From: a virus
Direction: 5' to 3' (one strand)
Length of the DNA: 20,901 bases
Virus record (IMG/VR): IMGVR_UViG_3300034284_000268
Location: 1 to 20,901 of that record
Shown piece after piece: positions 10,167 to 19,531 of the stretch. Made by a program: the position numbers and the translations under genes. The notes beneath the pieces are model-generated. The model saw only the letters and a program-made list of their open reading frames with translations. It searched no databases and was not told where the DNA came from. Numbering within the stretch: the first letter of the stretch is position 1; the number at the start of each line of letters is the position of its first letter.

Positions 10167-10715
10167 ATGATACAAATGTTCGGGGTCGAAATACCCAACC
10201 ACCTAAACGAGTTAACCGTTCAACAATTCGACGAGCTTAACAAAATTGAGAATAACCAAGAACTCGATACCATCGAAAAGTGGATTGAGAAATTTATCTA
10301 CCTTGGAGTACCTGAGAAGGCGTTTGACAAAATGGAACTCGAGGAGTTTACAAATTATATTAAAGAATTTAACAAGTCCGAAATTCCGCAAGGGGAAAAG
10401 GTGACCGAGTTAGTCATTGACAAATATACCTACCAAGCAAACGAGACCATCGGAGTAAAAGACTTGGGGCTTATTGAGAAAATATACCGAGGACAAGACG
10501 ACAACTTTTGCGCTCAAACGTTAGCTATACTTTTCAAACGTACTGACCTTACCCGTACCGAACACTACGCACCCGCTCACTTAAAGTTTAAAGTGAACGT
10601 AATGAAGAAACAAAACGCCGAAGTTGCCTTCCCGTACATTATGGAAATTCTGCAAAAGATAGCCGTTATTTCGGAAAAGAAAGTCGAAGAGGCTAACACC
10701 GAAGTAACAGAATAA
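10167..10715 (+). CDS. Putative tail assembly chaperone-like protein (first of a related pair)
   Basis: The 182-aa, helical, soluble product begins IPNHLNELTVQQFDELNKI, matching the opening of the next gene (LPRNWNEVTVNQWLELNTI) closely enough to suggest common ancestry. The rest is charged and helix-rich with an acidic C-terminus (KKVEEANTEVTE). I know no catalytic motif in it. Paired small helical proteins of this size between capsid and tail genes are often tail assembly chaperones (lambda gpG/gpT role), which hold the tape measure during tail assembly. Here, however, the pair is on the strand opposite to all other genes and far from the tape measure. The chaperone call is therefore tentative; a regulatory role is not excluded. 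Confidence 0.5.
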   Translation: MIQMFGVEIPNHLNELTVQQFDELNKIENNQELDTIEKWIEKFIYLGVPEKAFDKMELEEFTNYIKEFNKSEIPQGEKVTELVIDKYTYQANETIGVKDLGLIEKIYRGQDDNFCAQTLAILFKRTDLTRTEHYAPAHLKFKVNVMKKQNAEVAFPYIMEILQKIAVISEKKVEEANTEVTE

Positions 10716-10717
10716 AG

Positions 10718-11452
10718 GTGAATTTACCTAGAAATTGGAACGAAGTAACGGTTAACCAATGGTTAGAACTAAACACCATTGATGAACTCGAATATAACTC
10801 CGTATTCCTACAAACTATTGAGGCACTTTCCATACTCTCCGATACAGACCCCGAAGAGTTGGAAGACCTCGACCCCGAAGAACTAATTAACCTTGCTAGT
10901 AAAGTTAGTTTTATTCAGCGTGAGCCATCCAATAAACCAAAAGAACTGGTGAAGGGCTTAAAGTTAAAGCCGTTGGGTGCGCTTACGTTAGGGGAGTTCA
11001 TCGACCTTGAACATTATGCTATGCAATTTGTACAGAATTTCGATATTTTGCTTAGTATATTATACAAAAGGTTTAAATATGACGAATGGGGTACGCTAGT
11101 ATTTGAGCCGTATACGTATAGTATAATGAGCCGCAAAGACATATTCCAAAAGGTAAGTATAAACGAGGTTTACGGTGCAGTCAAGAACTATATCGACTAT
11201 TCAAACGACTTCAAGAAACGCTACGAGAATCTATTTAACCCCGTAATCGAGGAAGAGGAAACCGAACTAGATGAAGACGACATCAAAGCCGAAGCCGAAG
11301 AAAAGGTGTTTAGTAAATGGAGTTGGGAAAAATTACTTTACGACTTGTCAAACCAAGACCTCACAAAAATAGACGCAGTTACTGACCTAAATTTAGTCTT
11401 CGTGTTTAACATGCTGTCAATGGTCGAAGAGTTACAACTCAATAAAGACTAG
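10718..11452 (+). CDS. Putative tail assembly chaperone-like protein (second of pair, GTG start)
   Basis: It starts at GTG 10718, two bases after the TAA of the preceding gene, with AAAGG partly overlapping as a ribosome site. The N-terminus repeats the IP..WNE(L/V)TV.Q(F/W).ELN pattern of its neighbour. Acidic repeats follow (DTDPEELEDLDPEELINLA, residues 42-60), then PLGALTLGEFIDLEHY and a very acidic linker (EEEETELDEDDIKAEAEE). The C-terminal SWEKLLYDLSNQDLTKIDAV resembles a W...iy.LA..DitK module I have seen in tail-region proteins of Bacteroidota phages. Its stop overlaps the stop of the minus-strand 157-aa gene. Function is inferred only from similarity of pattern and genome region. 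Confidence 0.5.
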   Translation: MNLPRNWNEVTVNQWLELNTIDELEYNSVFLQTIEALSILSDTDPEELEDLDPEELINLASKVSFIQREPSNKPKELVKGLKLKPLGALTLGEFIDLEHYAMQFVQNFDILLSILYKRFKYDEWGTLVFEPYTYSIMSRKDIFQKVSINEVYGAVKNYIDYSNDFKKRYENLFNPVIEEEETELDEDDIKAEAEEKVFSKWSWEKLLYDLSNQDLTKIDAVTDLNLVFVFNMLSMVEELQLNKD

Positions 11453-15995: not shown

Positions 15996-16029
15996 AACTT
16001 AAAAAGTAATGTGTCCGTCTTTTGGTTAA
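15996..16029 (-). promoter_or_regulatory. Conserved leader element, copy D
   Basis: On the minus strand it starts TTAACCAAAAGACGG, whose TTAA shares bases with the terminase stop codon, and continues to TACTTTTTAAGTT before ATG 15995. Spacing of 34 bases from TTAACC to ATG equals that of copy C. TACTTTTT is the copy closest to the TAnnTTTG -7 box. Confidence 0.65.
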
Positions 16030-17177
16030 AAGGCTACATAGCCATCGTCCGTGTAGTACATCTCTTTAATGTAGGTCGTTGCATACCTCACGGCATCCAT
16101 GGCATCGTCGTATAGTTTAATCGGCTCGTCTAGAATCATGTCGCCTACCTTCTTCCACTTATAGTTTTCGTATTCCTTTTTGAGGGTTGGTTCTTCCTGA
16201 CAAAAGACACCGAAGGTCTTGACGTAGTTTATCCCCATCTTAACCGACTTGTTAGCGTTGTTCACGTTATACCCTGCGTTTTGCATCTCGGCAATTATTT
16301 CGGGTCGTGAGTAGTCAGCCATTATATCAATCGTCTTTTCAATGTCCATGTCTTTAAACTTTTGGATCAGCTCCGAAGTGGTTAGGTAGCTTTGATAAAT
16401 CACGGGTTCGATATAGATGTCCCCGTCAGACCAATAGACCCTTACGAGCGCAGTCGGGTGATTATACCCGAAGTCAAGTCCGTACACGAAATTAGTAAAC
16501 CTCGCAGGTCTCGACTTAGTAAACGTCCAATTGTTATAGATATTAGATTTGCTTATTGCCTTTTCCCCAAGTGCATAAATTTGGTATAAGCTTTCATCAG
16601 TCCGCTTAAGGTCTTCGATTTGGCGTTTAATACTTTCGGGTAGGAAGGGGTTGTCCCGGTACGTGGATTTGATTAACTTACTTTCATGGGGTGGTAACTC
16701 ATAAAGCCAACTAGATGACTCACTGGGATTGTAGTCAAATATCAGTTTATCCTCGGTTCGCATGTTCAGCTGTTGAAAGTCATCAAACCATAACTCATTA
16801 GCTTCGTTGCACCATCCAATGTCTCGCTTCCGTCCCCTAATCTTTTGCTCGTCGTCCACACTAAAGAACTCCACGATACTCCCATTTGGAAAGCGGTAAA
16901 TATTCTCGCTCATGTTATGGTTCGTCTTTTCGTAGATATCCAAGTCCTTAAGAATCTCGAAAAAGTCCCTCATCACCGTAGCCCGAAGTGCGGGGAAGGT
17001 CTTACGTACTATGCTCACTACCTTGTTCGGGTTTTGTATGCAATACACTATGACCATCTGACAAAGTGAATAGGTCTTACTTGATCGTGAACCGCCCTCG
17101 TTAATTATAAATCTAACCTCCGAGTTGGTAAGTGCGTCCCAATTACGAGCAAAGATATTAGTTGCTTTTATTTCCAC
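16026..17177 (-). CDS. terL: Terminase large subunit
   Basis: The 383-aa product has the two domains of a packaging motor. In the ATPase, EGGSRSSKT (residues 27-35) is the Walker A variant of PBSX/Terminase_3-type enzymes. IVRKTFPALRATVMRDF follows, and DIGWCNEANEL (119-129) carries the Walker B end with Glu125. The nuclease domain shows GLDFGYNHPTAL (Asp235), MADYS (Asp288) and DDAMDAVRYA (Asp358/Asp361), the three acidic metal-binding positions of the RNase H-like fold. It cuts concatemeric DNA and pumps it through the portal. It overlaps the 60-aa gene by 20 bases and is followed by leader element copy D. Confidence 0.93.
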   Translation of the reverse strand: MEIKATNIFARNWDALTNSEVRFIINEGGSRSSKTYSLCQMVIVYCIQNPNKVVSIVRKTFPALRATVMRDFFEILKDLDIYEKTNHNMSENIYRFPNGSIVEFFSVDDEQKIRGRKRDIGWCNEANELWFDDFQQLNMRTEDKLIFDYNPSESSSWLYELPPHESKLIKSTYRDNPFLPESIKRQIEDLKRTDESLYQIYALGEKAISKSNIYNNWTFTKSRPARFTNFVYGLDFGYNHPTALVRVYWSDGDIYIEPVIYQSYLTTSELIQKFKDMDIEKTIDIMADYSRPEIIAEMQNAGYNVNNANKSVKMGINYVKTFGVFCQEEPTLKKEYENYKWKKVGDMILDEPIKLYDDAMDAVRYATTYIKEMYYTDDGYVAF

Positions 17178-17340
17178 TTGCTATTTGATAGGCTTGTACT
17201 AACATGGAAAATTGGCGAGGGTCAATCATTTGTAGGCGGTCAATAGTTACGTGAACACCTTTGCGCTGAAAAATATACTCTTCAACTTTGGCGCACATAA
17301 GATTAATTTGTGTCTCCATTAAGTTTATCTGCATTGACAA
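17158..17340 (-). CDS. Hypothetical protein, 60 aa, between the terminase genes
   Basis: A short soluble protein with repeated MQINLMETQINLM at the N-terminus and a helical C-terminal half (FSMLVQAYQIASGNKSN). Starts at ATG 17340, 17334 or 17319 are all in frame; the last gives the smaller overlap (17 bases) with the upstream gene, which ends at 17303. I recognise no family. Because it lies between the DUF5681-type gene and terL and overlaps both, it could assist packaging, but nothing in the sequence proves it. Confidence 0.5.
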   Translation of the reverse strand: MSMQINLMETQINLMCAKVEEYIFQRKGVHVTIDRLQMIDPRQFSMLVQAYQIASGNKSN

Positions 17341-17692
17341 TGTTAACTTGAATTTCGCCTATACGTTCTCCTGCGGTTGTATGGTCTACGCTTTCCTTTG
17401 GCTTACCTACTGCCCTACTGAGTAGTGTTTCAATAGAATACAAACTACCTTTTTCAAGTGAACGTTTAAGTGCATTGGCTACCGTCTTTTCGAGTATCGT
17501 TGCCTTTGGGTTTTTATATACGTCAGCAAGTTCCTCAAGTGTCATTGATAGCATTACGAGAATACAGTCATTCACTTCCGAAGATTTATAGCCGCTGTCT
17601 TTAAGTTCGCTTATCCATTTGCGGGGTCGCCCGTTTGGGTTTCCGCTTTCGCCTTTTGACCAACGAGGTTCTATTTGTCCTTTACCTGCCAT
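17303..17692 (-). CDS. DUF5681-type protein, candidate small terminase
   Basis: The N-terminus carries the DUF5681 signature WSKGESGNPNGRPRK (residues 11-25), a basic Gly/Pro/Arg motif suited to DNA contact. A helical region follows (VNDCILVMLSMTLEELADVY and KTVANALKRSLEKGSL), then LLSRAVGKPKESVDHTT and a tail. Such proteins are often encoded just upstream of large terminases in phages and are candidate small subunits that recognise the packaging site. Here it lies one short gene upstream of terL. Its start is 12 bases after the stop of the ABC-GNAT gene. The domain is seen; the packaging role is inferred from position. Confidence 0.65.
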   Translation of the reverse strand: MAGKGQIEPRWSKGESGNPNGRPRKWISELKDSGYKSSEVNDCILVMLSMTLEELADVYKNPKATILEKTVANALKRSLEKGSLYSIETLLSRAVGKPKESVDHTTAGERIGEIQVNIVNADKLNGDTN

Positions 17693-17704: not shown

Positions 17705-18835
17705 TTATGTTGTTTTGTTTCTAAATTCAAAATGGAAAGTTCTAACCCCATTTTCTCTAAATCCTTGATTTTGCGCAAAACCTTTTGAAGCAGTTCCTCC
17801 AGTTTTCATTTTGCCCATTAATCTTTTTTCACCCAAGAAAATCCATTGCTTTTGTTTTCTCATTGCTTTGAAAACGGGAATAGCTGAAAATTTAGCCATA
17901 ATTTTGCAATCTATTTTTTGTTGAAGTAAAGCACTTGTTTCATTTATTAACTTAATTCCTAAACCCAATCCATTATAATCGGGGTGAATTACTGTTCTAT
18001 TTGAGTGATAAATAATCTTTGTTCCTTTTTTGTGTGGTGTATAGTTAGCAAAGCATTGGAAACCTATTTGGTCATTACCATAATAAATGCCGTACAAATA
18101 TATTTTACCACCGGGAAGTCGCTCACTTAAATAATGATATTTACTAAAATACTTCCATGTTTCTCTTCCGACTTCTTTAATTGTAAATTCAAGTTTTTCT
18201 CGCTCACTAAAAAAAAAATCCTCCGATTTGGGAAGTTCAAAAATTTGTTTGTTGCAATCAATTAACCAATCAGGATTAACCCATTCTAAAATGTCATAGT
18301 GACAACTCAATAAAATTATTTGTTTGTTGTGCTTTTTTGCAAATTTATGTAAGCACACGCTCATAGCTTTGGCAACGGTTCTATCCACTACGCTCGTCCA
18401 CTCATCTATACAAATAAAATCTTGTTTGCACATTAAATAAGCCGCTTCAGCTCTTGCACGTTGACCGTTTGACAAAGTTTTAATTGGTCTAATCCAACAA
18501 GGAACTGAATTCAATCCTATTCCATTCAATATACTTGCACAATCTTCATATGTAAATTCTTTGGGTAATTGATCAATGATACTTTTATTTTCATCTAACG
18601 AACAATCAAATATATCATTCCCAAACAAATGCTTTGCTAAGGTTGTTTTACCACTACCTGAAGCTCCATAAATTAAACCTATATTCCATGTTTTAGGAAG
18701 ATTGATATTATTTATTTCGAGTTTATGTATAGATTTTTTCTTTACGTCAATGTCCAAACTATTTGCTGCTGCTTGACATCTAAAAGTATTAAATACTTCA
18801 CTTTGTAATTCAAATTTAATATTGCTTGGTATCAT
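17705..18835 (-). CDS. ABC-type ATPase fused to a GNAT (Mom-like) acyltransferase
   Basis: Residues 1-~205 form a single soluble ABC ATPase: Walker A GASGSGKTT (57-65), signature LSNGQ (121-125), Walker B FICIDE (140-145), D-loop SVVD (148-151) and switch His179. No membrane segment is present, so it is not a transporter. Residues ~220-376 form a GNAT domain with WKYFSKYHYLSERLPGGK (227-244), IGFQCFANYTPH and the acetyl-CoA loop HPDYNGLGLG (284-293), followed by helix IKLINET. This fusion matches COG2401. The HYLS...G..IYL.GI and RTVIHPDYNGLG pattern is like phage Mom-type enzymes, which make carbamoylmethyl-adenine in DNA. It is coupled to the parB-like gene by ATGA. GC is ~32% against ~42% nearby. 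DNA modification is an inference. Confidence 0.75.
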   Translation of the reverse strand: MIPSNIKFELQSEVFNTFRCQAAANSLDIDVKKKSIHKLEINNINLPKTWNIGLIYGASGSGKTTLAKHLFGNDIFDCSLDENKSIIDQLPKEFTYEDCASILNGIGLNSVPCWIRPIKTLSNGQRARAEAAYLMCKQDFICIDEWTSVVDRTVAKAMSVCLHKFAKKHNKQIILLSCHYDILEWVNPDWLIDCNKQIFELPKSEDFFFSEREKLEFTIKEVGRETWKYFSKYHYLSERLPGGKIYLYGIYYGNDQIGFQCFANYTPHKKGTKIIYHSNRTVIHPDYNGLGLGIKLINETSALLQQKIDCKIMAKFSAIPVFKAMRKQKQWIFLGEKRLMGKMKTGGTASKGFAQNQGFRENGVRTFHFEFRNKTT

Positions 18836-19341
18836 TGAACAATTTTACAAATTAAACCTTCTTCAATTAATGAGTTATACCATTTTTCACACTCTTGTTC
18901 GTTTTCAAATTCTATATTTAAAAACCATTTTTGTGATAAATCGTAACCGCTTGGCTCATTTTCTTCATACTCTAAAATTTTTGGCACGTCCAAACCCCAA
19001 TTTTCTAATTCCTCAGCGTCCCATTCATTGGCTAACAAGTCCCAGTCCCATTCGCCACCGCTTACGTTGTCTTTAATCAAAAACTCCCGTTGTTGATCTT
19101 CCGTTAGGTTGTCCGCTACAATTACGGGTACTTCTTTTAATCCTGCTTCCTTACAAGCACGAAACCTCATGTTACCCCCTAATATAACCATGTCGTTATT
19201 CACTACGATAGGTCGTATGTCTAGCATCTCTGGAAAGTCTTTGATTGACTGCACTAAGTTTTTAAACTTGTCGTCTTTGATTTGGCGAGGGTTGTTAGGG
19301 TTTAATCTTACCTCTGATATTTTTACTAATTTACTTTCCAT
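18832..19341 (-). CDS. ParB/sulfiredoxin-fold nuclease-type protein
   Basis: Residues ~7-75 carry the ParB N-terminal domain: LNPNNPRQI (13-21), DIRPIVV (41-47) and ILGGNMRFRACKEAG (53-67), with the GGNMRFRA box that in this fold binds nucleotide (CTP in ParB). No helix-turn-helix of chromosomal ParB is apparent. Residues ~95-120 hold acidic WDWDLLANEWDAEELENWG, as in many phage ParB-like proteins next to DNA methylases. The C-terminal ~37 residues form a small beta-alpha-beta unit (KWFLNIEFENEQECEKWYNS). Base composition changes near residue 117: upstream ~42-47% GC, downstream ~28%. It overlaps the ABC-GNAT gene as ATGA, which suggests joint action. Confidence 0.8.
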   Translation of the reverse strand: MESKLVKISEVRLNPNNPRQIKDDKFKNLVQSIKDFPEMLDIRPIVVNNDMVILGGNMRFRACKEAGLKEVPVIVADNLTEDQQREFLIKDNVSGGEWDWDLLANEWDAEELENWGLDVPKILEYEENEPSGYDLSQKWFLNIEFENEQECEKWYNSLIEEGLICKIVQ

Positions 19342-19531
19342 TTGTGTTCGTCTTTTTAATGCTGTAATGGTCTAAAAATTCATCTTCGCTTATTTCTTCC
19401 AAGCACATTAACCCGTCCGAGTCCGTAAGGTAAAAAACTACGTGGGCTTTTTGCGCCTTTAGTTCGTCTTCCAGTGCAGCTGCAAACTTGGTCATGTTCT
19501 TCCCTGCGTCTAGTAGGTAGTAGTTAGCCAT
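19331..19531 (-). CDS. Hypothetical protein, 66 aa
   Basis: A small soluble protein with an N-terminal NYYLLDAGKNMTKFAAALED helix and then HVVFYLTDSDGLMCLEEISE, plausibly an alpha-beta fold. No motif is recognised. Its start overlaps the stop of the preceding 56-aa membrane protein gene by eight bases, and its end overlaps parB by eleven, so it belongs to the same coupled operon. No function is assigned. Confidence 0.55.
   Translation of the reverse strand: MANYYLLDAGKNMTKFAAALEDELKAQKAHVVFYLTDSDGLMCLEEISEDEFLDHYSIKKTNTNGK

What the first reader, a model, noticed from the sequence alone, without database searches (positions are those of the whole stretch)
17705..19341. ParB-like protein coupled to an ABC-ATPase/GNAT fusion: candidate Mom-like DNA hypermodification module
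Seen: an ATGA-coupled pair of a ParB-fold protein (GGNMRFRA box) and a 376-aa protein with complete ABC motifs (Walker A, LSNGQ, Walker B DE, switch His) joined to a GNAT domain with HPDYNGLGLG, and no membrane segment. Known: COG2401 proteins are ABC ATPases fused to predicted acetyltransferases; Mu Mom is a GNAT-fold DNA-modifying enzyme; ParB-fold proteins recur beside phage DNA-modification genes. Inferred: ParB and the ATPase may locate or open DNA so the GNAT domain can acylate or carbamoylmethylate a base, protecting phage DNA from host nucleases.
Basis: partly seen in the sequence, partly recalled or inferred. Interest (0 to 1): 0.78.

Follow-up and report, generated by a model that had tools for sequence, protein, structure and literature searches.

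The report
Phage ParB-guided ABC–acetyltransferase DNA-modification module
A phage gene pair joins a DNA-associated ParB protein to an ATP-driven acetyltransferase; near-identical phages carry a DNA methyltransferase on the same ParB head at the same spot, so the pair is probably a swappable system that chemically marks phage DNA, a type already predicted but never tested.

Summary
A 169-aa ParB_N protein overlaps (ATGA) a 376-aa ABC-ATPase/GNAT fusion, just upstream of the terminase genes. It is not chance: hundreds of homologues exist, and most have the same upstream partner.

New findings. (1) The ParB ends in a ~30-aa tail found only with ABC-GNAT in these searches; in some phages it is a standalone 41–75-aa gene (phrog_28816). 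In two blind genome scans, 20 of 21 tail hits lay directly upstream of an ABC-GNAT gene. Tail sequence tracks ABC-GNAT, not the ParB head. (2) In relatives with 87–90% identical flanking DNA, the same ParB head (94–96% identical) is instead fused to an N6/N4 DNA methyltransferase; in another relative it carries a tail and an ABC-GNAT only 34% identical. The ABC-GNAT thus occupies the place of a DNA-modifying effector.

The DNA-modification reading is supported. The "Mom-like" part is mostly not: the GNAT is canonical, nearer RimI than Mom. The general idea, an ABC-coupled GNAT acylating a DNA base, was published by Iyer et al. (2013; restated 2021, PMC7824862), including a homologue. No chemistry has been shown. 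Best guess: ParB-directed, ATP-gated acylation of phage DNA bases (confidence 0.7).

The parts
18988..19341 (-). ParB_N head (aa 1-118) of the ParB-like protein
   Evidence: PF02195 E=2e-11 aa 5-92; phrog_498 ParB-methyltransferase head 1e-30; 94-96% identical heads fused to a methyltransferase in L309/L312/L322; predicted fold pLDDT ~90
18928..18987 (-). variable low-confidence linker (aa 119-138); DNA homology to the ParB-methyltransferase relatives ends at 18989
   Evidence: pLDDT 54-66; blastn break
18835..18927 (-). C-terminal tail (aa 139-169), extended-helix-extended element, proposed docking element for ABC-GNAT; equivalent to standalone phrog_28816
   Evidence: HMM and alignment over 138 upstream genes, phrog_28816 match in 18 of 59 upstream proteins, blind genome scans, helix 148-160 at pLDDT ~90
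18221..18835 (-). ABC ATPase domain of the ABC-GNAT protein (aa 1-205)
   Evidence: PF00005 1.1e-7; invariant Walker A/B, signature, switch His
17705..18220 (-). GNAT acyltransferase domain (aa 206-376 and stop)
   Evidence: AlphaFold2 model pLDDT 87.7; VIA-align Z 13-14 to GNATs; invariant W/F/HY/R/P/G/G/W
17303..17692 (-). context: DUF5681 protein in the small-terminase position; DNA homology to the methyltransferase relatives resumes at 17631
   Evidence: PF18932 5e-8
16026..17177 (-). context: large terminase, used to find close relatives
   Evidence: PF04466 8e-28
19331..19531 (-). context: 66-aa gene immediately upstream; an equivalent 65-69-aa gene precedes the ParB-methyltransferase gene in relatives

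Best explanation
It is a phage self-DNA modification module built from exchangeable parts. The ParB_N head associates with phage DNA. Its C-terminal tail docks the ABC-GNAT effector. The ABC domain uses ATP-driven dimerisation to load on, clamp or open the DNA. The GNAT domain then transfers an acyl group from a CoA thioester to an exocyclic amine of a base, before packaging, so that host nucleases or defences attack the DNA less well. Shown by comparison: conserved pairing, the tail, its linkage to ABC-GNAT, and replacement by a DNA methyltransferase on the same head. Inferred: DNA as substrate, docking, ATP-gated loading, acyl transfer and protection. Unknown: which base, which acyl group, what sequence specificity.
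For: Same ParB head, different effectors: L309/L312/L322 carry the head (94-96% aa identity) fused to N6_N4_Mtase PF01555; nucleotide homology to L309 (87-90%) breaks at window 18989 and resumes at 17631, so [linker + tail + ABC-GNAT] is exchanged for [methyltransferase]; L310 carries the head (95%) with a tail and an ABC-GNAT 34% identical. Upstream partners are ParB-like in ~54 of 59 diverse loci by PHROGs and 31 of 59 by Pfam at E<=1e-3. Tail in 56 of 71 evaluable non-redundant loci, in 0 of 67 TerL relatives without ABC-GNAT, in 0 ORFs of the Mom loci. Blind scans: tail in the same 2 of 295 genomes as ABC-GNAT, adjacent (one of the two was the chosen centre); in a second class 18 of 19 tail hits lie within ~300 bp upstream of ABC-GNAT. 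Tail~ABC identity given head: partial rank correlation 0.545; head~ABC given tail: 0.08. Links to Mom: Enterococcus phage 9184 has ABC+GNAT where the related phage vB_EfaS_159 has Mom; L306 has Mom and ABC-GNAT ATGA-coupled; Mom in phage Appa and three other loci also follows a ParB.
Against: No phage with this gene was found here with a measured DNA modification. The GNAT fold alone looks like RimI/SpeG/Nat enzymes that act on proteins or small molecules. The window's ParB has no HTH domain, so how it would find DNA is unclear. Some homologues (P12024S, VmeM-32, PX29) have no recognisable ParB or tail beside them. The tail-ABC correlation could partly reflect physical linkage of overlapping genes.
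Confidence: 0.7

Rival explanations
1. Protein acetyltransferase: the GNAT acylates a host or phage protein (RNA polymerase, nucleoid or defence protein) and the ParB/ABC parts bring it to DNA-bound targets.
For: Closest folds are RimI and Nat-type protein acetyltransferases; profile-profile match to RimI is stronger than to Mom.
Against: The same ParB head carries a DNA methyltransferase in near-identical phages; Mom occupies the same locus or operon elsewhere.
Confidence: 0.13
2. DNA segregation or packaging factor: ParB plus an ABC ATPase act as a clamp/loader for packaging or plasmid-like partition next to the terminase, with the GNAT as a regulator.
For: Position directly before TerS/TerL in many loci; phage-plasmids such as SSU5 carry two ParB genes beside a related ABC gene and no Pfam-detectable enzyme among the tested neighbours.
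Against: The gene is not always near the terminase (right end of Mu-like phages, T4-like phages); close relatives lack it altogether (L308); the GNAT catalytic and CoA-loop residues are as conserved as the ABC motifs.
Confidence: 0.09
3. Small-molecule N-acyltransferase or other auxiliary function, with ParB and ABC as transcription-linked passengers.
For: GNATs of this fold often act on small molecules, e.g. an AAC(6') hit.
Against: Obligate-looking ParB-tail/ABC/GNAT architecture in hundreds of phages and conserved ABC catalytic residues.
Confidence: 0.05

Closest known systems
ABC ATPase-coupled GNAT predicted to acylate a DNA base (Iyer et al. 2013 NAR 41:7635, cited in PMC7824862; e.g. 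Tenacibaculum phage pT24)
   Same: Homologous protein: the pT24 locus is hit at E=1e-49; same domain pair; same predicted role.
   Different: The held text mentions no ParB tail, no exchange with ParB-methyltransferase and no formyltransferase subclade. The 2013 paper itself was not available here, so some of this may be in it.
ParB-N6/N4 DNA methyltransferase fusions (phrog_498)
   Same: Practically the same ParB head in the same genomic slot.
   Different: Effector is a SAM methyltransferase in one polypeptide instead of a tail plus separate ABC-GNAT.
Mu Mom (PF25680; PDB 8bv8) DNA hypermodification
   Same: GNAT superfamily; HY segment aligns, an Arg in the next conserved block may correspond; sometimes the same locus or operon or a ParB partner.
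   Different: The window protein lacks Mom's E108/A148/D149 signature, has a canonical CoA loop, and is coupled to an ABC ATPase.

Membership tests
PHROG 11143 / ABC-GNAT fusion family | full-length profile match | tested here: met
   E=6.3e-78 over aa 8-347
PHROG 11143 / ABC-GNAT fusion family | complete ABC motifs plus GNAT CoA loop in one chain | tested here: met
   conserved in the window and 72 non-redundant homologues
PHROG 11143 / ABC-GNAT fusion family | homology to the published exemplar phage pT24 | tested here: met
   tblastn E=1e-49, statement in PMC7824862; matched by locus, not by the quoted accession
Mom (PF25680) | profile score above curated cut-off | tested here: not met
   14.5 bits against 27.1
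Mom (PF25680) | HY motif before strand 2 | tested here: met
   H234/Y235 align with Mom H58/Y59; Mom's next residue S60 is Leu here
Mom (PF25680) | E108 and (S)FAD A148/D149 signature | tested here: not met
   invariant or at least 97% in 42-44 Mom proteins; not found in the window protein nor among the conserved positions of its family
ParB partition proteins | ParB_N domain | tested here: met
   PF02195 E=2e-11
ParB partition proteins | central HTH DNA-binding domain and C-terminal dimer domain | tested here: not met
   protein is 169 aa: head, linker and tail only; no other Pfam domain
ParB-DNA methyltransferase (phrog_498) | methyltransferase domain | tested here: not met
   no PF01555 in the window pair, present in L309/L312/L322/L368
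COG2401 | match to the COG2401 profile | not testable with these tools
   no COG library offered

The most novel reading that the evidence does not exclude
An undescribed class of ATP-gated DNA base acylation in which a ParB head and a ~30-aa docking tail form a plug-and-play platform: methyltransferase and ABC-GNAT effectors are exchanged on one head, and in one branch a 10-formyl-folate-type formyltransferase (20 loci) further elaborates the mark, giving a new hypermodified base.
Probability: 0.3. Interest if true: 0.85.

Novelty: new variant of a known kind. Interest (0 to 1): 0.6.

Why it matters
If true, a widespread gene pair now labelled 'ABC transporter' or 'hypothetical' in phages is a DNA-marking enzyme that depends on an ATPase. 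The natural swap with a methyltransferase on one ParB head gives near-isogenic phages in which to test what the mark is and what it protects against, and the ~30-aa tail is a sequence tag for finding such systems.

Tried and rejected
Mom membership: rejected on profile score and missing signature residues. A structure search did not list solved Mom (8bv8) among the 50 best rows; BFVD gave one protein named Mom at rank 23 (E 1.4e-4, TM 0.56/0.49) among many GNATs; this does not discriminate. A curated Mom search in 185 genomes of one class found nothing, controls included, so it is uninformative. Idea that the downstream formyltransferase is PurN-like (GAR transformylase): toned down, since NCBIfam places it nearer Fmt/ArnA-type formyltransferases, all far below cut-off. 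Idea that the small ORF before ABC-GNAT in Mu-like phages is a Com-type zinc finger: rejected, it is the tail module. Papers: no experimental test of ABC-GNAT was found in the held library; the LE3/LE4 paper has no restriction or methylation data. Iyer et al. 2013 itself is not held.

Full report
Observation. The two ORFs are real, at the stated coordinates, ATGA-coupled on the minus strand. Pfam confirms ABC_tran and ParB_N above cut-off and a GNAT region just below cut-off. PHROG 11143, a family of unknown function, spans the ABC-GNAT protein (6e-78). The protein has close relatives in IMG/VR, 69 GenBank phage records at E<=1e-5, and at least 595 confirmed IMG/VR stretches and 433 in bacterial and archaeal genome contigs. 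Across 73 sequences under 65% identical, ABC motifs and GNAT residues W227, F230, H234, Y235, R280, V282, P285, G289, G291 and W331 are 95-100% conserved, so both domains are under selection as enzymes.

Gene context. In phages of Pasteurella, Leptospira, Arthrobacter, Gordonia/Rhodococcus, Streptococcus and Oenococcus the gene is preceded by an overlapping ParB-like or 'DNA methylase'-labelled gene and is often followed by terminase. Over all loci the commonest downstream cluster is a large terminase (85 loci). Of 59 diverse upstream genes, about 54 are ParB-like by PHROGs (phrog_498, phrog_620) and 31 by Pfam at E<=1e-3. In Mu-like phages of Porphyromonas and Pseudomonas and in a gut phage the ParB head is missing and a 41-49-aa ORF overlaps the ABC-GNAT start instead. 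'Mu-like' here rests on the position after tail genes and near the genome end, not on a tested transposase.

The tail. These short ORFs resemble the last ~30 residues of the ParB proteins. An iterated HMM finds the element in 138 upstream genes, nearly always within a few residues of the C terminus, and in 56 of 71 evaluable non-redundant loci. PHROGs, built independently, has the standalone form as phrog_28816, which also hits the end of ParB proteins (8e-6 in L128; 18 of 59 members at E<=0.01). Searching genomes from the tail alone: 2 of 295 genomes in one class (one of them the centre used), the same two that carry ABC-GNAT, adjacent in both; 19 of 248 in another class, 18 of them within about 300 bp upstream of an ABC-GNAT hit on the same contig, the exception being G499. 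The tail is absent from 67 TerL relatives without ABC-GNAT, including four with a ParB-methyltransferase, and from all ORFs of the Mom loci. Over 114 loci tail identity follows ABC identity with head held constant (partial rank correlation 0.545, 0 of 300 permutations), while the head does not (0.08). Part of this may be physical linkage. The window ParB model has a confident head, a weak linker (aa ~121-140) and a confident helix 148-160 in the tail. I infer that the tail docks the ABC-GNAT.

Effector exchange. The closest relatives by terminase fall into several states. L308 (TerL 99% identical) lacks the module. L309 (98%), L312, L322 and the more distant L368 have one 390-405-aa protein, ParB_N plus N6_N4_Mtase. 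The ParB head of L309/L312/L322 is 94-96% identical to the window's over aa 1-118, and blastn homology with L309 (87-90%) stops at window 18989 and resumes at 17631. L310 has the same head (95%) with a different tail and an ABC-GNAT only 34% identical. Conversely L005 shares an 87% identical ABC-GNAT and an 86% identical tail but a 62% head, and blastn shows no other homology to the window region compared. This is direct evidence that ABC-GNAT is one of several effectors used with this ParB head, another being a DNA methyltransferase.

Links to Mom. Mom in Microbacterium phage Appa and three more of 44 non-redundant Mom loci follows a ParB-like gene. In Enterococcus phage 9184 the ABC and GNAT genes interrupt the end of the DNA polymerase gene; in the related vB_EfaS_159 Mom sits directly after the intact polymerase, and the next gene is shared. 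In L306 Mom and ABC-GNAT are ATGA-coupled. So the families meet in the same loci, but they are not one family: the GNAT domain scores 14.5 bits with PF25680 against a cut-off of 27.1, profile-profile comparison favours RimI (E 1.8e-6, P 90) over Mom (E 5.6e-4, P 30), and the Mom match covers only the HY segment. The fold is a canonical GNAT (Z 13-14, rmsd ~3 A over ~135 residues to RimI, SpeG and others). An Arg follows in the next conserved block of both families (R280 here, R111 in Mu Mom), but its equivalence rests on reading the motifs by eye.

Formyltransferase branch. In 20 loci a Formyl_trans_N protein (PF00551, phrog_9240) overlaps or abuts the 3' end of ABC-GNAT. It suggests further processing of the mark, and is not present in the window.

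Prior art and novelty. PMC7824862 (2021) states that a GNAT coupled to an ABC ATPase was earlier predicted to carry out an uncharacterised acyl modification of a DNA base (Iyer et al. 2013) and names phage pT24, whose locus is homologous here. The central idea is therefore not new. New as far as the held literature shows: the docking-type tail, the natural head/effector exchange with a methyltransferase, and the formyltransferase branch. No experiment on any member was found.

Verdict. DNA-modifying effector: likely (0.7). Acylation of a base: inferred from the GNAT fold. Mom-type carbamoylmethylation: no specific support.

Noticed in passing
L037 (Enterococcus phage 9184) 1330-4846: The ABC and GNAT genes are inserted into the DNA polymerase gene, splitting off its last ~80 codons, which are fused to the GNAT ORF.
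   Followed up: partly
L306 1474-3272: A Mom gene and an ABC-GNAT gene are ATGA-coupled in one phage contig, with no ParB tail found.
   Followed up: partly
L228 1969-3121; L278, L279, L284: Mom genes preceded by overlapping or adjacent ParB-like genes whose C-terminal ends (zinc-type CPxC in Appa and L278) differ from the ABC-GNAT tail.
   Followed up: partly
L026, L029, L030, L031, L152, L155, L156, L158, L161, L168 and ten more: A Formyl_trans_N gene overlaps or abuts the 3' end of ABC-GNAT in 20 loci; nearest NCBIfam models are Fmt/ArnA type, all far below cut-off.
   Followed up: partly
L021, L022, L024, L032, L037: In several phages (Oenococcus, Streptococcus, Tenacibaculum pT24, Thomasclavelia, Enterococcus) the ABC and GNAT domains lie in separate neighbouring ORFs.
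   Followed up: no
L035, L036: Phage-plasmids SSU5 and nickie carry ParB, ParB/'methyltransferase', ABC and a ~295-aa protein without a Pfam match in a row; the effector there is unidentified.
   Followed up: no
window 10167-11452 (+): Two ORFs (182 and 244 aa) lie on the plus strand inside an otherwise minus-strand structural gene block.
   Followed up: no
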